A DNA stretch of 64,000 nt from Prochlorococcus sp. AG-409-I11 (GTDB lineage: Bacteria; Cyanobacteriota; Cyanobacteriia; PCC-6307; Cyanobiaceae). Location of the stretch: NCBI GenBank assembly GCA_003215725.1, contig QCJX01000006.1:1-64000 (forward strand), read 5' to 3'. Positions 1 to 43,728 of the stretch are shown one piece after another; position 1 is the first letter of the stretch; every line of letters begins with the position of its first letter. Position numbers and translations under genes: made by a program. The notes under the pieces were generated by a model. It was not told the origin of the DNA and did not search any database. It was given only the letters and a program-made list of their open reading frames with translations.

Positions 1-406
1 CTGCTGCTAAAACAATAATCGAAGTTAATTTTGCAAATTCAGATGGTTGAACATTTAATCCTCCAATAGTTAACCATCGCTGAGCTCCTAAAGCTGAAGT
101 TCCAATCAATCGAACTGCAATCAAACTAACAACAGTAAGTCCATAGATAGGTATTAAAAACCGACGAATTCTCACTATAGGAAGCTGAGCTGTCCATAAA
201 GCAATCAAAATGCCAAAGCAAGCCGTAATCCAATGTTGATACCAATCTGCATAATCCACCTGACGCTGAGTACTGGCTATCAATATGCCCGACAAAAAAA
301 CCAATGAAATAGGAGAAAACCATAGAATAAAATTTTTTTTCTTCCAGTTTTTTTGTACACGACCTAGTCGGTATAAAACTTTTTCTTTTTTCCCAAATGT
401 AAACAT
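1..406 (-). CDS. rodA: RodA/FtsW-family peptidoglycan polymerase, N-terminal part (runs off window start)
   Basis: Manual minus-strand translation from ATG at 406: MFTFGKKEKVLYRLGRVQKNWKKKN...RQVDYADWYQHWITACFGILIALWTAQLPIVRIRRFLIPIYGLTVVSLIAVRLIGTSALGAQRWLTIGGFNVQPSEFAKLTSIIVLAA; the 'GAQRWLxIGGFxxQPSEFAKL' motif is typical of RodA/FtsW. Partial. Confidence 0.85.
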   Translation of the reverse strand, partial: MFTFGKKEKVLYRLGRVQKNWKKKNFILWFSPISLVFLSGILIASTQRQVDYADWYQHWITACFGILIALWTAQLPIVRIRRFLIPIYGLTVVSLIAVRLIGTSALGAQRWLTIGGLNVQPSEFAKLTSIIVLAA

Positions 407-417
407 TAAATATATAT

Positions 418-1494
418 TTATGAAATTGGAAATTCAAATGAAATGACTGATTTTGCAAGTTTTTGAAAAGCTTGCGCACTCAGGGAATCTGAATGGCTTT
501 GAACAATCGGCACTCCAGAGTTGCCACCTTCAAGAATGGGCATTTCCATAGGTATTTGAGCTAACAATGGAACAGAATTCTCCATCGCAAGTTGCTGACC
601 ACCTCCAGCACCAAACAATGCATAACTTCGATCAGGCTGATCAGGTGGAATAAATGCAGTCATGTTTTCAACTACTCCAATTATAGGAATGTTCATTTGT
701 CTAAACATTGACAATCCTCGTCTTGAGTCTTGCAATGAAACTTTCTGCGGAGTAGTAACAATTACCACCCCTTCAATAGGAACAGCTTGTGCAAGAGAAA
801 GTTGAGCATCTCCAGTGCCTGGAGGTAAATCTACAACCAAATAATCACAAGAACCCCAACAAGTTTGATATAAAAACTGTCTAATAATGCCATTCAACAT
901 TGGTCCCCGCCAAATAACAGGCTGATTTTCTTCAATCAGTAATCCCATAGAAACCATACATATTCCACAACTTTCTAAGGGGATAATTTGTTGGTCAGCT
1001 CCAGTACCAGAAACTTCTGGTGTTTGATCAGAAACACCAAGCATGGTTGGGGTATTCGGGCCATAAATATCAGCATCAAGTAGCCCTACCTTTAGGCCGT
1101 TTTGTGCTAGAGCACATGCAAGATTGACCGCAACAGTACTTTTACCAACTCCTCCTTTTCCACTACTTACTGCAATAACTTTGTTTACACCAGGGATAGG
1201 TTGTCTAACAGTTTCTTGACCATGACCAGCCTGACCAATCTGCCCACTAGAAGGCGCATTCGCTAACTCAATTTGCACTTCACTGATATCAGGAAAGTTA
1301 TTCAAAATTTCTCTAATTTCTTTTGCTATGCGATCTCTTTGAGCTAATGCCACGTTTGGGATATTTAATCTAACGACAGCCTTGGGAGGGTCTACTCGTA
1401 CTTGATCAAGCCAACCAAGCTCAATTGCACTTTTCCCACTCCCAAAATCTTTGACTGACTGGAGAGCAGTAAGTGCCCGTTCGGCAATGTTCAT
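418..1494 (-). CDS. mrp: Mrp/ApbC-type P-loop Fe-S cluster carrier ATPase
   Basis: Deviant Walker A 'SSGKGGVGKSTVAVNLA', 'LDADIYGPNTPTMLG', N-terminal DUF59-like domain. Confidence 0.93.
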   Translation of the reverse strand: MNIAERALTALQSVKDFGSGKSAIELGWLDQVRVDPPKAVVRLNIPNVALAQRDRIAKEIREILNNFPDISEVQIELANAPSSGQIGQAGHGQETVRQPIPGVNKVIAVSSGKGGVGKSTVAVNLACALAQNGLKVGLLDADIYGPNTPTMLGVSDQTPEVSGTGADQQIIPLESCGICMVSMGLLIEENQPVIWRGPMLNGIIRQFLYQTCWGSCDYLVVDLPPGTGDAQLSLAQAVPIEGVVIVTTPQKVSLQDSRRGLSMFRQMNIPIIGVVENMTAFIPPDQPDRSYALFGAGGGQQLAMENSVPLLAQIPMEMPILEGGNSGVPIVQSHSDSLSAQAFQKLAKSVISFEFPIS

Positions 1495-1719
1495 ACCCAG
1501 TTTGCAAATATCAATAATCCTAATTGTGGAATATTCTGGCTTAACCTAACGGAGGCTGCAAATTCCTTCATTTCACTAAAACTTCACTGATCAATGATAA
1601 ATCTCTCAGATTAGGTTTTCTTTTTTAATCCTAAGGTCCTTTTGAACCTCATCTAAAACCAATAAAAAGGGCCAACCACAAAGGTCAAATCTCAAAGTTT
1701 CTCAAACCCAACGGTAACT

Positions 1720-2739
1720 ATGCCTCCCTCCGACTCAAGAGAAAGAGCAAAAACATTAGTTCTTTCTATCCAAGATGAAATATGTTCTGGGTTAGAAATA
1801 CTTGATGGAGAAGGGAAATTTATCGAAGAAAGTTGGGTAAGACCAGAGGGTGGAGGTGGTAAATCTCGTGTTATGCAGCAGGGGAAAATATTTGAACAAG
1901 GAGGGGTGAACTTTTCGGAAGTTCATGGTCAAGAATTACCACCATCAATTCTTAATCAACGGCCTGAAGCAAAAGGCCATCCCTGGTTTGCTACAGGGAC
2001 TTCAATGGTTCTCCACCCTCGTAATCCTTTCATCCCAACTGTTCATCTCAATTATCGATACTTTGAAGCTGGTCCAGTTTGGTGGTTTGGAGGAGGAGCC
2101 GATTTAACCCCTTTTTATCCATATTTAAATGACGCAAAACACTTTCACATGACTCATAAAGAAGCATGTGATTCCGTAAATCCAGAGTTGCACAAAGTTT
2201 TTAAGCCTTGGTGTGATGAATATTTCTTCCTAAAGCATCGTGATGAAACCAGAGGAATTGGAGGCATTTTTTACGATTATCAAAATGGTGCAGGGCCTCT
2301 TTACAAAGGACAAAACATGGATGGGGTGGCCGCTCAGGCATCAAATAAGATTGGATCTCAAGAAATGAATTGGGATCAACTTTTCAACTTGGCTCAATCT
2401 TGTGGACGAGCATTTTTGCCTGCTTATAGCCCCATTATTGAAAAAAGACAAAACCAACTATATGGAGATCGAGAAAGAGAGTTTCAACTTTATAGAAGGG
2501 GAAGATATGTGGAGTTCAATTTAGTTTGGGACCGTGGAACCATATTTGGCTTACAAACAAATGGTCGTACCGAATCTATATTGATGTCTTTACCACCTTT
2601 AGCTAGATGGGAATATGGGTACTCTGCAAGTAAAGGGTCAAGAGAAGCATTATTAACAGATCTTTTTACTAAACCTCAAAACTGGCTTAGTGATGATTCA
2701 TTACAAGAAGCATGTTTAATTCATAATGCAGTTGATTAA
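1720..2739 (+). CDS. hemF: Oxygen-dependent coproporphyrinogen III oxidase
   Basis: Motifs 'VHLNYRYFE', '[15 protein letters not shown]', '[10 protein letters not shown]', '[12 protein letters not shown]'. Confidence 0.97.
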
Positions 2740-3494
2740 GGAGAGTCTATTTTTAATCCTATAAGGAAAGTATTAACGACTTGATTTGCAATTGTATTAA
2801 TAGTTTCCTTTCTAGTTTCTAAATTTCTAAGTCTTTCTTCAAGAGTTCCCTCTAATTTACCTATTTCAAGGACTCTAATTTGTCTACGAGGCGCACCAAG
2901 ACCACCACGAAAAAATAAAGGGTATCTTCCAAAGCTCTTAGCAAAACTTTCATCTAAAAAATTTAACTGGCTTGATAGAGCTGGAATAAGGCCCGACCCA
3001 AAACCATGATGACCATATGAGTCAAAATGAATTTCAATTGCATACCCACCTTTTTGAGCATGCTTAGCCCCTACTGACCAATTAGTAGAGGGATCATTTG
3101 GATCTTCAATTGTACGAATGATTGGATCATAAGAGTTGATATTCAAGCCTTTATCCTTGCCAATTTTGACTACAGCATCTCGTATTTTTAAATTCCAAAA
3201 AAGTTCATCGCTCATCTTTTCATCCATAGGCCTTGCTCCATTGAGATCTACTGCTTCTCCTGAAGTTCCAGAACCAGCAATCCCTTGAGAATCTGCATGG
3301 CCAGCAAGTACCAAAATAGGAATAGATTTTGATAAAACTTGATTGCCGACCCAATTACTTTTTATTTGAACACGAGAACCAATTAACTGTTGAACATCAT
3401 TTAACTCAGATGAATATGACAATGATTCCAAACAACAGAAGCTAACTATGCTACTGACAAAAAGAATAATTTTGTGCAAGTTTTTCAAAGCCAA
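2736..3494 (-). CDS. Secreted protein resembling N-acetylmuramoyl-L-alanine amidase family, tentative
   Basis: N-terminal signal-like segment; '[15 protein letters not shown]' and '[10 protein letters not shown]' resemble zinc-amidase motifs. Confidence 0.5.
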
Positions 3495-3513
3495 AATGGA
3501 ACCTCGTACTTTT

Positions 3514-4065
3514 TTAAACTGGTGAAGACATTAATGATCCATCACTTGATAGCTCAAGTTTATGAGCTAATTCTTTTTCCATAGCTATCAATTCATCCCG
3601 ATGAGCCCTCAAACGCAAAACACTACCTCCATGTTCAATTGAATTCATCAAACGCATCTCTAAAGATTCAATCCGTGTAGATCTTTTCCAATAAATAAAA
3701 CCGGCAAAAGGTCCCCCAATAACTGACAGTAATAAAGGCCACCATCTCAATGAAGGGTAAAGCTCGCATAGAACTAACCCTAAACAGCCGGCTCCAAGCC
3801 CTCCAAGAGTTGACAGAAAAACTGCAAAAATATAGCTAGACGAAACACTCCCATAAAAACGAAGAACTTGTCTTTCAGCATCACCTCCATCGCTTTGCCA
3901 TCCTCGTTCTTCCAACCATTTGCTAACACCATTAAGCACCTCTAAAGGAGGAAGCGGTGAGGATATGTCTATAACAGTGGTGCGGTCTTTACTCGCTGCT
4001 CTAAGAAAAAAAACCAAACCTATAGCTAGCAAAATTGTTAGAAGGAGTATTGAAGGTGAAAACAT
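3514..4065 (-). CDS. Membrane protein, possibly cofactor assembly of complex C subunit B (CCB1/DUF3529-like)
   Basis: N-terminal TM, cyanobacterial conserved architecture; family assignment from recollection only. Confidence 0.45.
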   Translation of the reverse strand: MFSPSILLLTILLAIGLVFFLRAASKDRTTVIDISSPLPPLEVLNGVSKWLEERGWQSDGGDAERQVLRFYGSVSSSYIFAVFLSTLGGLGAGCLGLVLCELYPSLRWWPLLLSVIGGPFAGFIYWKRSTRIESLEMRLMNSIEHGGSVLRLRAHRDELIAMEKELAHKLELSSDGSLMSSPV

Positions 4066-4311
4066 TTGAATCTCAGTTGGAATAAAAAAAGTTGCTCAAA
4101 AAAATTTGTAATGCAGGAAGACCTAAATCATGAATTCATTCCAGCGTAATTAATTTGTTTTATAGCCATGCTGATCTTGAATAAGAAGAGCAACCAAAAA
4201 TGATTAACCGACATACCATTCTGATGATGGGATACCTAACGGGAATCTTATTGACAGTAAAACGAAACTGTCTGAACCTACATAAATTCTAAATTGCGTC
4301 CAATTTGACTT

Positions 4312-4956
4312 ATGGCAAACGTTCCAACAATTCCAAAAAGTTTTGATGTCTTTGATAATGACCTAGATCAAGAAATTTTCAACGTTTTTAAATCTGCAAA
4401 GATTTTGGCGGTTGATACTGAAGCTATGGGCCTAGTTCACGGTCGAGATCGTTTATGCCTTGTACAAATATGTGATGAGAAGGACAATGTTTGTTGCATA
4501 AGAATTCAATTGGGTCAAAATTCTTCACCAAACTTACAAGCATTGATGGAAAGTAATGAAATCGAAAAAGTCTTTCATTACGCAAGGTTTGATATTTCTG
4601 CATTAGCAAGCAATTTAAATATTGAAGTAAAGTCGATTTTTTGTACAAAAATTGCTAGTAAACTTGCTCGTACATATAGTCCTCGTCATGGACTTAAAGA
4701 AGTTGTTATGGAACTAGTCGGCATAGAACTAGACAAGCAAGCCCAAAGTAGTGATTGGGGGAAAGTCGAAGAGTTAAGTACATTACAATTGGCCTATGCA
4801 GCTAATGATGTTAGATTCCTTATTGCCGCAAGACATCAACTTAAAAAAATGTTAAAGAGAGAAGATCGCTGGGAATTGGCTCGGAAATGTTTTCAAGCTC
4901 TTCCAGTAATAGCAGAATTAGATAGGTATCGTTATACTAATATTTTTGACCACTAA
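4312..4956 (+). CDS. rnd: Ribonuclease D-like 3'-5' exonuclease
   Basis: 'LAVDTEAMGL' (DxE), 'FHYARFDISAL', 'YAANDVRFLI' DEDDy exonuclease motifs. Confidence 0.88.
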   Translation: MANVPTIPKSFDVFDNDLDQEIFNVFKSAKILAVDTEAMGLVHGRDRLCLVQICDEKDNVCCIRIQLGQNSSPNLQALMESNEIEKVFHYARFDISALASNLNIEVKSIFCTKIASKLARTYSPRHGLKEVVMELVGIELDKQAQSSDWGKVEELSTLQLAYAANDVRFLIAARHQLKKMLKREDRWELARKCFQALPVIAELDRYRYTNIFDH

Positions 4957-4972
4957 AATAATACTTACTTAA

Positions 4973-5230
4973 TCAATCTTCAGTCATAAAATTTTCTTCT
5001 TCAGCAAGAGCAACTAAGAGTAAATCTAAATTAGCAGCACCTTCTTTTTGCATAGATTGTGCTTTATCCAATAATTTTTCTGCAATTGCTTTGCGATGGG
5101 ACACTTCTTTAATTCCATCTCGACTAGCTATCAAGTCAACTTGTCTTCTGGCTGAAGCAATACTAATGCTTAAACATGTGGCTAATTTTCCACATGTTCT
5201 TAAATACTGATGATCTTCAATAGGGGGCAT
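4973..5230 (-). CDS. Conserved hypothetical cyanobacterial protein
   Basis: 85-aa ORF between conserved genes, plausible coding composition. Confidence 0.6.
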   Translation of the reverse strand: MPPIEDHQYLRTCGKLATCLSISIASARRQVDLIASRDGIKEVSHRKAIAEKLLDKAQSMQKEGAANLDLLLVALAEEENFMTED

Positions 5231-5291
5231 ATCAAACCTTAAAGGTGTTTTAAACTTGATCTTAAAAGACTATAACTTTTATCCAGTTATT

Positions 5292-6716
5292 TTAATCAAA
5301 AAGAAAATTCAAAATAATTGATGCCAAAGATAAACTTCCTCCTTCTGAGCCCATTCTACTGGCTCCAATAAAACCAATTTGCCTACGAAGAGAATGGTTT
5401 TCTAGAAGGAATTCTGCTCTCCTAGCCAAACCAGTTTTACTTTTACATGGCACAACTGCTCCTCCAAGTAAACGACTTTGACGAACTGCAAAATCATATT
5501 TGAATTGAGGGCCATTCCCTGGTAATGACAAAGCTGGAATTCCAAGTCCAACTAATTGCTCGGTTGCAGTGCCAGCATTCGCCAATCCAACCTCTGCCCA
5601 GTTTGCCCAATGTGAAAATTGACCTGGTCCTAACAAAACGAGGCAAGAATCTCGATACCAACAGGCCTTAACTCCTATTAGTTGATCTTCAAATTCACAA
5701 GGCTTGTAACCCAAATTTCTTAAGCAAGTTTCTATTTGATTGAGATCTGGTTCTGCTCCAGTCGGGACAAGAATTGCTAAAGGATTGTGTTTTTCTATCA
5801 AATGAGAGGCAATTAAAAGCTCATTTAAATTATTCAAAGCTTCAGGACTCCTACTGCCACAAAGCAATAACAATCGTCTAAAAGGTTTTAAAGATGAAGG
5901 GCATTCCAACTTTTTCAGACCATCCATCATTGGATTCCCAGGAGCACATGCCATAACGCCATATCGCTTCAAACCACGAGCAGTCAATCGATCCCTTACT
6001 GCAACTAATTTGCATCTTGAAGACCTCATTAAAGCCACTTCCCAAGGGTCCCATTCGGTTCCCTTTAGACGATGATATAAATCACTAAATGAGCTTCCAG
6101 GGCCGCTAAGCCATGTGTAATCACTCTTCGGTGTACCTATAAAACCAAAATTTGCTCCACTGGTCCAGGCAAAGAAAAGGGGCAAAAGATCCCCTACAGC
6201 AACTATTGTTCTTAGCTGCGAGGCTTTTGAGCAAATATAAAACCATTGCTTAAATGTATTCCACAATAATCCTGCATTAATGTCGGCTAATAGGCCTCGA
6301 AAACTTTGATTGCCAAATCCTCCACTTGGTAGTCGCAACGAGGGGCCAACCATCTCAAGCCAACCTTGTGAAATTGCAGGTTGGAACGCTTTTCCCTCTC
6401 CTACAAGAGGTAAAACCTCTAACGTAAGTCCAGGTTGCAACCTATGAATCTCGTCTAAAACTCTAAGTGCTATCAAGTCCTCACCATGACCATTACTAAT
6501 AACTAAAAGGTATTGATTCGCCTGACTGATACGATCCGGATAGGGAGAGACGATCTCTCTTGGGGCGGCATGGCCAAGTGGTAAGGCAGAGGATTGCAAA
6601 TCCTTTATCCCCAGTTCGAATCTGGGTGCCGCCTTCTTACCTTTCTTCATACCAATTCCTGTCATGAGTTGCAGGAACTCGATTATGAGATCTCTTTTTC
6701 TAATCCTTTTTGGCAT
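5292..6716 (-). CDS. Lipid-A-disaccharide synthase-related glycosyltransferase; start codon uncertain (ORF upstream end is antisense to tRNA-Cys)
   Basis: 'LLVISNGHGEDLIALRVLDEI', 'PTGAEPDL', 'LVGLGIPALSLPGNGPQF'. N-terminal extension in the ORF track passes through the tRNA-Cys complement, so true start is probably internal. Confidence 0.75.
   Translation of the reverse strand: MPKRIRKRDLIIEFLQLMTGIGMKKGKKAAPRFELGIKDLQSSALPLGHAAPREIVSPYPDRISQANQYLLVISNGHGEDLIALRVLDEIHRLQPGLTLEVLPLVGEGKAFQPAISQGWLEMVGPSLRLPSGGFGNQSFRGLLADINAGLLWNTFKQWFYICSKASQLRTIVAVGDLLPLFFAWTSGANFGFIGTPKSDYTWLSGPGSSFSDLYHRLKGTEWDPWEVALMRSSRCKLVAVRDRLTARGLKRYGVMACAPGNPMMDGLKKLECPSSLKPFRRLLLLCGSRSPEALNNLNELLIASHLIEKHNPLAILVPTGAEPDLNQIETCLRNLGYKPCEFEDQLIGVKACWYRDSCLVLLGPGQFSHWANWAEVGLANAGTATEQLVGLGIPALSLPGNGPQFKYDFAVRQSRLLGGAVVPCKSKTGLARRAEFLLENHSLRRQIGFIGASRMGSEGGSLSLASIILNFLFD
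6564..6634 (+). tRNA. tRNA-Cys(GCA)
   Basis: GGCGGCA...TGCCGCC acceptor stem, anticodon loop TTGCAAA (GCA), T-arm CCCAGTTCGAATCTGGG. Confidence 0.96.
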
Positions 6717-6823
6717 TAAGACCGGAATGGAAATGTAATGGAACTCAGGGTTCTAATCGACCAAACTTGTAACCCTTTCCTAGTTTCCCAGAGCTTCCAT
6801 TCCTTTGCCAGGGAGGTTTCCCA

Positions 6824-6946
6824 GTGACTAAGGCAATACCAACTTGGATGGAATCTTTTCCTGCTGAATACAAAGGTGTTGTCGTTAGGTGCGAGGAAAC
6901 TTTCTATCGTTTAAGAGAGGGCGCAGGAGGATCAGCAAAGAAATGA
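6824..6946 (+). CDS. Small ORF 1 of tRNA-Cys-proximal cassette (40 aa, GTG start)
   Basis: GTG with GGGAGG ribosome-binding site 7 nt upstream; MTKAIPTWMESFPAEYKGVVVRCEETFYRLREGAGGSAKK; stop overlaps next ATG (ATGA). Confidence 0.6.
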   Translation: MTKAIPTWMESFPAEYKGVVVRCEETFYRLREGAGGSAKK

Positions 6947-7050
6947 TTCGCCACTTTCTTTCTTTCCTTTCTTCTTATCAAAGAGGAATCGAGGCAGGTG
7001 ATTTTTATGAGGAACCTGTTGGAGATGATTTCTCCTATCCAGATTGGTAA
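6943..7050 (+). CDS. Small ORF 2 of cassette (35 aa)
   Basis: MIRHFLSFLSSYQRGIEAGDFYEEPVGDDFSYPDW; starts in ATGA overlap with ORF 1. Confidence 0.6.
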   Translation: MIRHFLSFLSSYQRGIEAGDFYEEPVGDDFSYPDW

Positions 7051-7053
7051 GCG

Positions 7054-7170
7054 ATGAACTATTCCGATGCACTATTCATACTTGCTCCCACCATTGGATT
7101 GGTGATTTTCTTTTTTGCAATGAATGTTGTGATCACAAGAGTTTTTACTAAGGATCGAGACAGAAGATGA
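7054..7170 (+). CDS. Small ORF 3 of cassette (38 aa, single predicted TM helix)
   Basis: MNYSDALFILAPTIGLVIFFFAMNVVITRVFTKDRDRR; 3-nt gap from ORF 2, ATGA overlap with ORF 4. Confidence 0.6.
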   Translation: MNYSDALFILAPTIGLVIFFFAMNVVITRVFTKDRDRR

Positions 7171-7376
7171 TTGATGCCTACACACTTGAGCAGTGCAAGA
7201 AAGATAAGGAAATTAGACAACTTAAAATCAAAAATTTGGAGCATGCCATCGAACAGTCAGAAACGATGATTGCGGAATCACAAATGGATGAAAATGCCTT
7301 GACCTTTTTGAGAAGGAAGGTCGCCGACTCAAGACAGGATCTCGAAGTGCTTTATTTAATGAATGATCAAGAGTAA
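7167..7376 (+). CDS. Small ORF 4 of cassette (69 aa, coiled-coil-like)
   Basis: Charged heptad-like sequence; stop immediately precedes the nuclease ATG. Confidence 0.7.
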   Translation: MIDAYTLEQCKKDKEIRQLKIKNLEHAIEQSETMIAESQMDENALTFLRRKVADSRQDLEVLYLMNDQE

Positions 7377-8231
7377 ATGATTGACCTCAAACGAAACAGC
7401 AAGAAAGAACCTGTTAAAGCAACTGGCGTTCGTGCCAGAGAGGCGTCCTCGTATACCCCTAATCAAACAAAAGATTTCAAGATCAGTCGAGGTCGCTTCT
7501 CTAACTTCCTGACTTGTCCAAGGTGTTTCTATCTGGATCGTGTCAAAGGTCTTGATGCACCAGGAACACCCGGTTGGACGCTCAATGAAACCACTGATCT
7601 CCTACTGAAGAAAGAGTTCGATCACTGCCGAGAACAACAGATTCCTCATCGTTTATTTGCACCCAATGGATTGAGTCATGTCGTTCCATTTGATCATCCT
7701 GAAATGGATAACTGGAGAGACTCCCTTCACCACGGATTGATGCTTCGGCACAAGGACACCTCAATCATTCTCACGGGAGGGGTTGATGACATTTGGCAGG
7801 ACACAAGAACTAAGAAATTAATAGTGGTGGACTACAAATCTCAAGCAAAGAATGGGCGATTAGATAAGCAGGATTACCTCGATGATCCATACCACGACGG
7901 ATACAAAACTCAGATGGACTTCTATGCCTACCTACTTACAGGGATGGGGTTTGATGTCCATCCAACGTCTTATTTCTTGGTCTGCAATGCCAAAAGGGAT
8001 GACGATGGATTCCATAAGACGATGAACTTTGATGAGTACCTCGTTCCTTACAACTGGGATAGTGATCGGATAGAGGGACAGGTCGATGAGATGGTTGCCC
8101 TGATGAATAAACACGAAATTCCTGAACCGAATGAGTGCTGCAAGAACTGTGCCTATGCAGATCAGTACGCAAAGGCAGTGCATCAAGGAGGAGTCACTCA
8201 AGGTCAAGGTCTTCAAGGGACATTGTTCTAG
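7377..8231 (+). CDS. PD-(D/E)XK nuclease (RecB/Cas4-like) with putative Fe-S cysteines
   Basis: 'GGVDDIW', 'IVVDYKSQ' (D...DxK), 'QMDFYAYLL' (QxxxY); cysteines at N-term 'CPRCFY' and C-term 'CCKNCAYAD'. Confidence 0.87.
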   Translation: MIDLKRNSKKEPVKATGVRAREASSYTPNQTKDFKISRGRFSNFLTCPRCFYLDRVKGLDAPGTPGWTLNETTDLLLKKEFDHCREQQIPHRLFAPNGLSHVVPFDHPEMDNWRDSLHHGLMLRHKDTSIILTGGVDDIWQDTRTKKLIVVDYKSQAKNGRLDKQDYLDDPYHDGYKTQMDFYAYLLTGMGFDVHPTSYFLVCNAKRDDDGFHKTMNFDEYLVPYNWDSDRIEGQVDEMVALMNKHEIPEPNECCKNCAYADQYAKAVHQGGVTQGQGLQGTLF

Positions 8232-8233
8232 GC

Positions 8234-8446
8234 ATGAAACGCTTAAAAGTTTTCAGTTTCATTAGTGCTCAAAAGAGAAACATCGCTCCTATTCCACCCC
8301 CCCCCTTCAAGATTCCCAATACTGGTCCCACTCATCCTGTAGTTCAGTGCTTGAGAGGGAGTTATAGAAACCCCTCCACTTCTTTTCTGAATTGGCGTCA
8401 GTGGCAACTAGGGACACCAACAGATCGATTACCTGTTCTTGGTTAA
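8234..8446 (+). CDS. Small ORF 6 of cassette (70 aa) containing a C9 homopolymer
   Basis: ATG 2 nt after nuclease stop; same frame as the tail of track ORF 8135..8446, whose upstream half merely overlaps the nuclease. Confidence 0.5.
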   Translation: MKRLKVFSFISAQKRNIAPIPPPPFKIPNTGPTHPVVQCLRGSYRNPSTSFLNWRQWQLGTPTDRLPVLG

Positions 8447-8552
8447 AGGATTTGCCGTCATCTGATTTGAATATCACTTGTCTCTATTGCCCATATCCAA
8501 AACTTACTGGTTTCTGAAGATTCAGGACGTTTTATCTACCCTGTGGTGATAG

Positions 8553-8723
8553 TCAGTCACCTTTGTCATTAACGTCACCTGAGTAAGGTTGAGTTCCTAT
8601 CTCTGGTGGTGGATTATTACTGAAATCATCAACTAAAGCATCTGCTTCACTTTTGAATAATTTGGTGAACCATTGTTTAGTTGCAATGATTGCAGTCCAG
8701 ATTTTCTCTCTTTTTCTAGTCAT
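8553..8723 (-). CDS. Small hypothetical ORF (56 aa)
   Basis: MTRKREKIWTAIIATKQWFTKLFKSEADALVDDFSNNPPPEIGTQPYSGDVNDKGD; protein-like composition; not in ORF track (length cutoff). Confidence 0.5.
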   Translation of the reverse strand: MTRKREKIWTAIIATKQWFTKLFKSEADALVDDFSNNPPPEIGTQPYSGDVNDKGD

Positions 8724-8855
8724 AACTAATATTCCTCTCTTAATTAATTTCCATAATAAGACAGGTGTTTTCTCTCATGTTCTCTTAGTCCAGATTGATT
8801 AGGATTTAATTAGGAGTTAAAGCACGATTGGTCTAAAAAATAAGTGCTTGACTCA

Positions 8856-8883
8856 AAGGGGGTGACCGAAATCTCACCCCCTT
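8856..8883. terminator. Strong GC stem-loop, probable terminator or boundary hairpin
   Basis: AAGGGGGTGA-CCGAAATC-TCACCCCCTT, perfect 10-bp stem, 8-nt loop. Confidence 0.6.
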
Positions 8884-8945
8884 CTTAATGCCTTACTGAA
8901 ATCAAAAAAATCCTCTAAAAAGGAAGGGCAACAAAGTCCCAACCC

Positions 8946-9125
8946 ATGTCTCTAATCCCTCGGTGGGAATACATGACTGGTGACGCGAAGGCAATGACCA
9001 AGAGGGTTGTTCTTTCTGCATTAGTTCTTCTTCTTTCCCTTTGGATCATCAGAGCACTCATCCCTTGGGTAATAGTTGCTTTATTGGGTTACTGGGTCTT
9101 CAAGTGGTTATCGAAGGGCAGTTGA
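8946..9125 (+). CDS. Small membrane protein (59 aa)
   Basis: MSLIPRWEYMTGDAKAMTKRVVLSALVLLLSLWIIRALIPWVIVALLGYWVFKWLSKGS; two hydrophobic stretches; GGAAGG-containing upstream region. Confidence 0.6.
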   Translation: MSLIPRWEYMTGDAKAMTKRVVLSALVLLLSLWIIRALIPWVIVALLGYWVFKWLSKGS

Positions 9126-9148
9126 GTTGGTTGGTGCCCTGAGGTTGC

Positions 9149-9406
9149 TTATACCTTGACCCGTCCTTTCGTTAACCAACCAGTAGAGCGAATGTTCTCC
9201 CTCGTTGTTTCTGCTGTTTGCTCTGATTGGATGTAATTCAAATAAGTGTCCTGTAACTGCTGAACACTTGTATGTCCATTAGCAGCAAAAGAACCAATCT
9301 GAGGTGGCACCCAAAGAGATTGATCGTCTTCAAGGGTTAATCGAAATGCTGTGTGCCTAATAGTTGTCCAAGGTTTCTGTCCCAGATCAAATTTCGGAGA
9401 ATCCCT
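9149..9406 (-). pseudogene. C-terminal remnant of a tyrosine recombinase/integrase
   Basis: Manual minus-strand translation: RDSPKFDLGQKPWTTIRHTAFRLTLEDDQSLWVPPQIGSFAANGHTSVQQLQDTYLNYIQSEQTAETTRENIRSTGWLTKGRVKV*; RHTxxR box, GHTS box and downstream Tyr; in-frame stop directly upstream, no N-terminal domain. Confidence 0.8.
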
Positions 9407-9735
9407 TTAAAGGATTGATTTATCCGTTGTATCTTTCTTGAAACCGATAGGAAAAGCACGATAGATTACAAAAAGGTTTTTCGACCTGCTTGAAGTATCT
9501 TAAAAGTTGCCTAACAACACCACTATTAGGAGAAATTAATTTTGTTGTCAAAGTAAACCTCACAAATATGCAGTTTAATTCGTTAAAAAGCACTGAAAAG
9601 AATAAAGATCATTCCAGAGAATCCAACATTGTCCTCTATTTAATAAAATAGAGTTATATTTTGGACTTTATTAATTGAAGAGTTGAATAGGTTATCCCTC
9701 GCAAATAAATACGACTTTTGCTTATATTCTTTTGA

Positions 9736-31418: not shown

Positions 31419-31823
31419 GTGAAAGCAGGAGAGGTGATCGCAATTGAGACTTAATGCTTTTAAGTATTTAGCTCTCATTTGAGGAAAGTCCGGGCTCCCC
31501 GATGGTCAAGCTTGCTGGGTAACGCCCAGTGCGGGTGACCGTGAGGATAGTGCCACAGAAACACACCGCCAATGGCTAGATGAAAAGCTCATCTATGCAC
31601 AGGCAAGGGTGCAAAGGTGCGGTAAGAGCGCACCAGCAGTATCGAGAGGTGCTGGCTAGGTAAACCCCGGCTAGGAGCAAGGCTAGGAACAACGGCTGAC
31701 CAATCTTCCCTGTTCCATTGAAATGAGCCGCTAGAGGCTGCCGGTAACGGCCGTCCCAGATAGATGATCACCCACCTACCTTAAGGAAGGTGAACAGAAC
31801 CCGGCTTACGACCTGCTTTCACA
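31419..31823 (+). ncRNA. rnpB: RNase P RNA
   Basis: 'GAGGAAAGTCCGGGCTCCC', 'GGTAAACCCCGG', 'AGATAGATGATCACC', 'ACAGAACCCGGCTTACG' and closing P1 pairing GAAAGCAGG/CCTGCTTTC. Confidence 0.96.
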
Positions 31824-31888
31824 TTTTTAAGTGCTAAAAACGAAAGACTTAATGTGCTTTTTTAATAACACTTTAGACGTTTAATCGC

Positions 31889-42028: not shown

Positions 42029-43471
<1,443 letters not shown>

Positions 43472-43482
43472 TCACATTTATC

Positions 43483-43568
43483 ACTTCCCTTCGCCAGAGC
43501 GACCTGGATCAGGTTCAGAGGGTGTGATCTCAGCCAATAAAACCTTGGAAGGTTGGCACCCCTAGTGT
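43483..43568 (-). promoter_or_regulatory. TPP riboswitch (THI element) upstream of thiC
   Basis: Minus strand: AGGGGTGCCAACCTTCCAAGGTTTTATTGGCTGAGATCACACCCTCTGAACCTGATCCAGGTCGCTCTGGCGAAGGGAAGT; conserved CUGAGA, ACCCU..GAACCUGAUC..., GGGAAG. Confidence 0.95.
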
Positions 43569-43728
43569 TAATTACAAGTTAGCTATAAATCGAAATTAAG
43601 TCTGCAGTAAGTTGGAAGAAATTTAAAATCTTTAAAGTAAAGCTTTAATTTCTATGGTTATAGAAGAGAAAGATAATTTTCTATAAAAACTATTTACTAT
43701 TACCAATAATCAATGAATCCAAAATTAA

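What the first reader, a model, noticed from the sequence alone, without database searches (positions are those of the whole stretch)
6824..8446. Compact six-ORF cassette with Cas4/AddB-like PD-(D/E)XK nuclease next to tRNA-Cys
Seen directly: ORFs at 6824 (GTG with GGGAGG RBS), 6943, 7054, 7167, 7377 and 8234 are joined by ATGA overlaps or gaps of 0-3 nt. The first three are below the ORF-track cutoff. Products: two tiny soluble peptides, a one-TM peptide (MNYSDALFILAPTIGLVIFFFAMNVVITRVFTKDRDRR), a coiled-coil 69-mer, a nuclease, and a 70-mer. The nuclease keeps D...DxK and QxxxY and has cysteines at both ends, resembling the 4Fe-4S layout of Cas4/AddB. One nuclease line (7681-7740) counts 27/60 G+C, richer than typical flanks. 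Inference: an acquired, still translationally intact module such as phage- or satellite-derived DNA processing or a defence cassette. Its function is unknown to me.
Basis: partly seen in the sequence, partly recalled or inferred. Interest (0 to 1): 0.75.

Follow-up and report, generated by a model that had tools for sequence, protein, structure and literature searches.

The report
Mobile Cas4-like nuclease in tRNA island
A DNA-cutting enzyme gene of Prochlorococcus-type marine cyanobacteria moves between strains as a bare start-to-stop gene and is parked behind whatever gene is there, here in a decayed mobile island beside a tRNA; the other five reading frames are shuffled neighbours or misread frames, not a working six-gene unit.

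Summary
The ORFs are there, but the six-ORF cassette is not a unit. ORF1 (6824) is the 5'-truncated tail of a 63-aa gene. The 70-mer (8234) is spurious: substitution patterns show the coding frame is an antisense 56-aa ORF (8307-8477, minus). ORFs 2-4 are real, conserved small genes that recur elsewhere in other orders.

The nuclease (7377-8231) is a RecB/Cas4-fold PD-(D/E)XK protein with invariant GxDD, DxK, QxxxY and four invariant cysteines (CxxC near each end). It scores below Cas4 cut-offs and does not fit a 1+3-cysteine layout.

In 35 non-redundant loci it has 25 different upstream and 22 different downstream contexts. Homology stops at the start codon and near the stop codon even between copies 89-91% identical; at a stable site the flanks still align. 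Many copies abut the preceding stop codon. The block 6810-9115 is 95% identical in a genome whose flanking core genes are about 62-75% identical (nuclease dS 0.10, purM 1.9), so it was transferred horizontally.

The site is a tRNA-Cys hotspot. A relative carries a 12.8-kb element there with att repeats, an integrase and this nuclease; the window keeps 82 residues of that integrase. The mobility is well supported. The biochemical role, defence or repair, is unresolved.

The parts
6563..6636 (+). tRNA-Cys (GCA); its 3' end is the integration site used by intact elements in relatives
   Evidence: the att 18-mer CGAATCTGGGTGCCGCCT is repeated 6.6-12.8 kb away in G011, G028, G029, G004
6810..6946 (+).
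   Evidence: homology begins exactly at 6810; intact copies in L094 966-1157 and L096 4504-4689
6943..7050 (+). ORF2, 35-aa conserved small protein; its original ATGAGC start is mutated to ATCAGC
   Evidence: homologues L032, L002, L041, L055; conservative substitution pattern
7054..7170 (+). ORF3, 38-aa one-TM peptide, recurring next to other genes elsewhere
   Evidence: L032, L046, L084, L050, L078; substitutions mostly third position, e.g. [4,1,12]
7167..7376 (+). ORF4, 69-aa coiled-coil-like protein; followed by other genes, not the nuclease, in L041, L050 and in this genome's second island
   Evidence: [7,5,18], [18,6,34]; L095
7377..8231 (+). PD-(D/E)XK (PDDEXK_1) nuclease, 284 aa, the mobile single-gene unit
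   Evidence: Pfam PDDEXK_1 41.9 bits, cut-off 22; A1 alignment; AlphaFold pLDDT 81, Foldseek to AdnAB, Cas4, RecE, MGME1; dN/dS well below 1
8307..8477 (-). 56-aa conserved small gene, an independent shuffled unit (8307-8517) found in L033, L037, L046, L060 and in L095 of the same genome
8946..9125 (+). 59-aa membrane peptide with its upstream region (unit 8800-9125), repeated in other islands
9152..9397 (-). C-terminal remnant (residues 377-458) of the tRNA-Cys-element recombinase, 70% identical to the intact one in G011

Best explanation
The nuclease is an accessory, stand-alone RecB/Cas4-fold DNA nuclease that circulates in marine picocyanobacteria as a single-gene module. The module is the ORF itself, start codon to about the stop codon. 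It brings no promoter or obvious ribosome site, so it is probably translated by coupling to whatever gene ends at its start codon (TAAATGA, GAATGA, or 0-4 nt gaps). In this window it sits in the decayed remains of an integrative element at the 3' end of tRNA-Cys. The element's recombinase is reduced to its last 82 residues and the far att site is gone. The five neighbouring ORFs are other shuffled units, one truncated remnant and one misread frame. Shown: fold and catalytic motifs, selection on the protein, horizontal transfer, ORF-exact boundaries, the tRNA-Cys element in relatives. Inferred: expression by translational coupling, and degradation or trimming of DNA ends. My best guess for its use is protection against incoming DNA (about 0.4), with DNA repair next.
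For: Motifs and four cysteines invariant in 21 sequences down to 31% identity. Foldseek best hits AdnAB nuclease 5.6e-5, type I-C Cas4 1.0e-4, SSO0001 Cas4 2.3e-4, RecE 5.2e-4. dN well below dS. 35 loci, 25 upstream and 22 downstream contexts. L008/L029, L043/L050 and L033/L037 align over 856-858 of 858 nt at 89-91% with no homology within 1.4 kb either side; control L017/L051, at a stable site, keeps 87-92% identical flanks at 94% nuclease identity. 16 of 40 loci have a 50-aa or longer ORF ending within -12..+6 nt of the start. Nuclease dS 0.10 against purM 1.9 with G084; 0.36-0.61 among G003, G031, G016 where purM is saturated or nearly so. Intact element with att repeats 12.8 kb apart, recombinase beside attR, and nuclease cargo at the same lpxB-like/tRNA-Cys/purM site in G011; same recombinase family only at this site, 6 of 119 genomes. 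38-46% relatives stand next to type I RM, CBASS, MTase/SNF2 and type IIG-like genes in L067, L068, L063.
Against: No activity data. PADLOC sees only weak Cas4 similarity in the nuclease and nothing in four TPR neighbours. In one clade the gene sits stably beside SRAP, a DNA-damage protein, and a 33% homologue is at a fixed site near guaA in HL-type genomes, which fits repair better than defence. Several loci have no coupled upstream ORF. The recombinase assignment rests on motifs and position: no Pfam, PHROG function, NCBIfam or PDB match, and an unusable model.
Confidence: 0.62

Rival explanations
1. Two-part defence: a variable TPR protein (N-terminal TPR, different C-terminal domains) senses infection and the constant nuclease is the effector; swapping the upstream gene changes specificity.
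For: About 13 loci have a TPR-family gene ending at or near the nuclease start; in complete genomes G003, G031 and G039 TPR genes lie just upstream; distant relatives lie in defence islands.
Against: Window and others (54-mer, 62-mer, 69-mer upstream) lack a TPR gene directly before the nuclease; TPR genes are also followed by many other genes at the same junction; no PADLOC match to TPR proteins.
Confidence: 0.22
2. DNA-repair or recombination nuclease (AddB/Dna2-like end trimming) that happens to be island cargo.
For: Stable pairing with SRAP in five genomes; PIF1-like helicase neighbour in L066; solitary copy among housekeeping genes in Chloroflexi L056; fixed 33% homologue near guaA.
Against: Sporadic, multi-copy and frequently exchanged in the window-type clade; no helicase partner in the window.
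Confidence: 0.25
3. Selfish homing-type gene: the nuclease cuts target sites and is copied into them, spreading itself.
For: Moves alone as a bare ORF, multiple copies per genome (G003 two intact; G000 at least two), truncated relics in several genomes, varied insertion contexts.
Against: Fold is closest to exonuclease-type RecB/Cas4 proteins, not a known homing family; no common target sequence seen beside the junctions; strong protein-level selection over long times; no target duplication noticed.
Confidence: 0.1
4. One reading: one co-functional six-ORF phage- or satellite-derived cassette.
For: The ORFs are tightly packed; the block is shared at 95% identity with AG-363-K07.
Against: Only two genomes share the order; ORF1 truncated, ORF6 spurious, ORF4 stopped in AG-363-K07; the units recur separately.
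Confidence: 0.03

Closest known systems
PDDEXK_1 / RecB-like nucleases (Pfam PF12705; Cas4, AddB, Dna2, RecE, MGME1, EXO5)
   Same: Fold, GxDD...DxK...QxxxY motifs, metal-cluster-like cysteines at both ends
   Different: Stand-alone 284 aa, 2+2 cysteines instead of 1+3, no helicase or CRISPR partner seen beside it, ORF-exact mobility
Tycheposons and other tRNA-anchored integrative elements of marine bacteria (described from PMC10872708 and PMC11389934; the original paper is not in the library)
   Same: tRNA att site, recombinase beside attR, cargo, found in Prochlorococcus
   Different: Recombinase family here is not matched by any library searched; window copy is a remnant; packaging not testable here
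Free-standing homing endonucleases of T4-like phages (own knowledge)
   Same: Bare nuclease ORF sitting between genes, sporadic, with relics
   Different: Nuclease fold family and lack of a recognisable target site
Integron gene cassettes (own knowledge)
   Same: Single-gene units reshuffled
   Different: No attC-like recombination site noticed; boundaries are the codons themselves; junctions are start/stop overlaps

Membership tests
PDDEXK_1 superfamily | Curated score cut-off and D...DxK...QxxxY core | tested here: met
   41.9 bits vs 22; D138, D152, K154, Q179, Y183 invariant; fold matches
CRISPR Cas4 | Score above Cas4 family cut-offs | tested here: not met
   Pfam Cas_Cas4 19.6 vs 22.7; NCBIfam TIGR00372 23.3 vs 65
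CRISPR Cas4 | One N-terminal and three C-terminal cluster cysteines | tested here: not met
   Invariant cysteines are C47, C50 and C255, C258, two plus two; the 1+3 rule is own knowledge
CRISPR Cas4 | Neighbouring cas1/cas2 or CRISPR array | not tested
   Not scanned systematically; none recognised by eye among listed ORFs
AddB | Nuclease fused to a UvrD-like helicase region in an AddAB complex | tested here: not met
   284-aa stand-alone ORF whose only Pfam hit above cut-off is the nuclease domain
Tycheposon / tRNA integrative element | Integration at a tRNA 3' end with direct att repeats | tested here: inconclusive
   Met in G011, G028, G029, G004 at the same site; the window has only one att copy
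Tycheposon / tRNA integrative element | Tyrosine recombinase | tested here: inconclusive
   Invariant R282, K310, RHT 389-391, Y427 in order, but no informative library hit and a poor model; the window keeps only residues 377-458
Tycheposon / tRNA integrative element | Transfer in particles or vesicles | not testable with these tools
   No experiment possible
Known anti-phage defence system | Match to PADLOC models beyond generic Cas4 | tested here: not met
Homing endonuclease | Recurrent insertion at a conserved recognition sequence | tested here: inconclusive
   No shared motif seen beside 40 start codons; empty cognate sites not found

The most novel reading that the evidence does not exclude
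A PD-(D/E)XK nuclease gene is its own unit of transfer: an ORF-exact mobile gene with no terminal sequences, inserting at translational stop/start junctions so that any host operon expresses it, perhaps by its own nuclease activity. It would be one member of a wider gene-by-gene shuffling system (TPR genes and small ORFs joined by ATGA overlaps) operating in tRNA islands of Prochlorococcus.
Probability: 0.14. Interest if true: 0.82.

Novelty: new variant of a known kind. Interest (0 to 1): 0.52.

Why it matters
Prochlorococcus has a very large gene pool but lacks the usual gene-transfer machinery (stated in PMC10654061). A gene whose transferred unit is exactly one reading frame, and which seems to be expressed through its neighbours, gives a concrete case in which the unit and joints of gene shuffling can be measured. 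If the nuclease protects cells against incoming DNA, it is a widespread, uncatalogued accessory in the most abundant photosynthetic organisms.

Tried and rejected
Phage origin: no tblastn match in the phage collection with the window protein, the 33% relative or the 45% relative. Cas4: below all curated cut-offs. Boundary produced merely by purifying selection: rejected, because flanks align at the stable SRAP site at comparable divergence. The 70-mer as a gene: rejected by substitution pattern. A second att copy in the window: none with up to 3 mismatches. Direct or inverted repeats bounding the cassette: only short, imperfect ones. PDB sequence search for the nuclease gave nothing useful. 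Structure of the recombinase: pLDDT 44, not used; profile comparison with PF00589-type integrases gave no match at Neff about 2. A search centred on the Chloroflexi and Peregrinibacteria loci was not possible.

Full report
1. What is there. The window lies in a draft genome (G000, 1.33 Mb in 37 contigs, 74% complete) whose nearest public relatives are Prochlorococcus single cells. The nuclease 7377-8231 matches PDDEXK_1 above its curated cut-off (41.9 vs 22 bits) and Cas4 below cut-off (NCBIfam 23.3 vs 65). In 21 homologues down to 31% identity the GxDD, DxK and QxxxY motifs and four cysteines (C47, C50, C255, C258) are invariant. The AlphaFold model (pLDDT 81, pTM 0.79) is closest to AdnAB nuclease, Cas4, MGME1 and RecE. 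Selection on the protein is strong: dN is well below dS in all 60 closest pairs.

2. Two of the six ORFs fall away. Homology of ORF1 to relatives begins at 6810 inside a longer gene: AG-363-K07 has the intact 63-aa version, and contig C24 of the same genome has a 61-aa version. In the window its 5' half is gone; the apparent ribosome site GGGAGG is part of codons for GGF. A point change ATGAGC to ATCAGC removes both its original stop and the start of ORF2. The 70-mer at 8234 overlaps a conserved antisense ORF, and the distribution of substitutions over codon positions shows that the antisense frame is the coding one. ORF2, ORF3 and ORF4 are conserved coding genes, although ORF4 has an in-frame stop in AG-363-K07.

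3. The nuclease is a unit on its own. When 6401-9600 was compared with all fetched loci, only AG-363-K07 shared a long block (6810-9115, 95%). Nearly all others matched the nuclease alone, from the start codon to near the stop codon, while other pieces (7049-7174, 7141-7377, 8307-8517, 8800-9125) recurred separately. Thirty-five non-redundant full-length loci have 25 distinct upstream and 22 distinct downstream contexts. Pairs of copies 89-91% identical over 856-858 of 858 nt have no detected homology within 1.4 kb on either side (L008/L029, L043/L050, L033/L037). At one stable site, beside an SRAP gene, the flanks of copies 94% identical remain 87-92% identical. The sharp boundary is therefore most simply a real joint, not the edge of selection.

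4. The joints are often stop/start overlaps. In 16 of 40 loci an upstream ORF of at least 50 aa ends within -12 to +6 nt of the nuclease start. Upstream genes differ: TPR/Sel1 proteins, 54-, 62- and 69-aa proteins, and others. Conversely, TPR genes ending ...GAGCATTGCGAATGA are followed at the same ATGA joint by the nuclease or by several other genes. The 69-mer is followed, at the same TAAATGA, by the nuclease here and by different sequences in L050 and in this genome's second island. Three of the 38-40% relatives start 0-4 nt behind an unrelated gene: an 895-aa gene in L066, a CBASS 2TM effector in L067 and a 536-aa gene in L069. I infer expression by translational coupling; it is not shown.

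5. Horizontal transfer. AG-363-K07 (G084) carries the block at the same place, next to purM, yet its core genes there are only about 62-75% identical in DNA. Nuclease dS is 0.10 against 1.9 for purM and 2.1 for both panC-cmk and icd. Nuclease copies of G003, G031 and G016 differ by dS 0.36-0.61, while purM is 58-62% identical in protein and saturated or nearly so. The gene is present in 26 of 149 relatives, in two intact copies in G003, and probably in at least two copies in this genome: contig ends C3 and C24 both break inside another copy, with tRNA-Ser(cga) on C24.

6. The island. Between an lpxB-like gene and purM (names by eye, not tested) the distance ranges from about 1.8 to 19 kb among relatives. 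In G011 the site holds a 12.8-kb element. An 18-nt repeat of the tRNA-Cys 3' end marks both ends, a 458-aa recombinase abuts the far end, and the interior carries a serine recombinase, TPR genes and this nuclease. G028, G029 and G004 have elements with the same recombinase family (39-47% identical to the G011 protein) and other cargo. In 119 genomes this recombinase family occurs in six, all at or beside this site, including an 82-residue C-terminal remnant in the window at 9152-9397 and an N-terminal remnant in G020, 5 kb from purM. It shows R282, K310, R389-H390-T391 and Y427 in tyrosine-recombinase order but has no informative library match, so its class is an inference. Recombinases lie near the nuclease in 13 loci, although complete genomes hold only 1-4 PF00589 integrases each.

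7. Function. What is shown is an intact, selected, RecB/Cas4-fold nuclease. The use is open. For defence: residence in islands, and relatives in R-M and CBASS islands. For repair: the SRAP neighbour, a PIF1-like helicase neighbour in L066, and the fixed 33% homologue near guaA in HL-type genomes. Against a textbook defence system: no PADLOC match beyond weak Cas4. I put defence at about 0.4 including the sensor-effector variant, repair 0.25, selfish homing 0.1, the rest unknown.

8. Known or new. As a protein it is a branch of a known superfamily. As a mobile element the site is tycheposon-like, judged against descriptions in PMC10872708 and PMC11389934; the original description is not in the library. 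What I have not found described in the searches made is start-to-stop single-gene mobility at stop/start joints, with a comparable-divergence control.

Noticed in passing
L062 (= L097) 1-5391, IMGVR_UViG_3300006565_001285: Cyanomyovirus gp55-gp47 DNA (about 72% to S-RSM4-like phages) is joined just before the nuclease start codon to 3.7 kb of Prochlorococcus nuclease+SRAP DNA (95%). Only one contig has the joint, so an assembly chimera is not excluded.
   Followed up: partly
L071 12664-14040 (oriented; fetched strand 5165-6535 +), L079, L080, L081: 458-481 aa recombinase family, found only at the tRNA-Cys/purM site, with tyrosine-recombinase-like residues but no informative Pfam, PHROG, NCBIfam or PDB match.
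   Followed up: partly
L033 6454-6633, L034 3459-3650, L036 5543-6909, L010, L009: TPR genes with a constant 3' end (GAGCATTGCGAATGA) are followed at the same ATGA joint by many different genes: a family-wide gene-by-gene shuffling pattern.
   Followed up: partly
L067 1027-6723: A 39% nuclease relative starts 4 nt after a CBASS 2TM effector gene, behind a CBASS cyclase and a type I restriction enzyme.
   Followed up: partly
G017, G066, G174, G193 and others, about 37-44 kb on C1 in most: A 33% homologue occupies a similar position near guaA in HL-type Prochlorococcus genomes; three of these also carry a window-type copy near 342-348 kb with different neighbours.
   Followed up: partly
L096 4150-4236 and L095 1-5900: A second island of the same genome, beside tRNA-Ser(cga), contains the same small genes (61/80-mer family, 35-mer, 69-mer, 56-mer, 59-mer, nuclease, TPR) in another order and orientation.
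   Followed up: partly
window 43469-43573 (-), 31421-31824 (+): TPP riboswitch and RNase P RNA, ordinary.
   Followed up: no
L017, L018, L048, L051, L053: Stable pair of the nuclease with an SRAP (HMCES/YedK-type) gene about 60 nt downstream in five genomes.
   Followed up: partly
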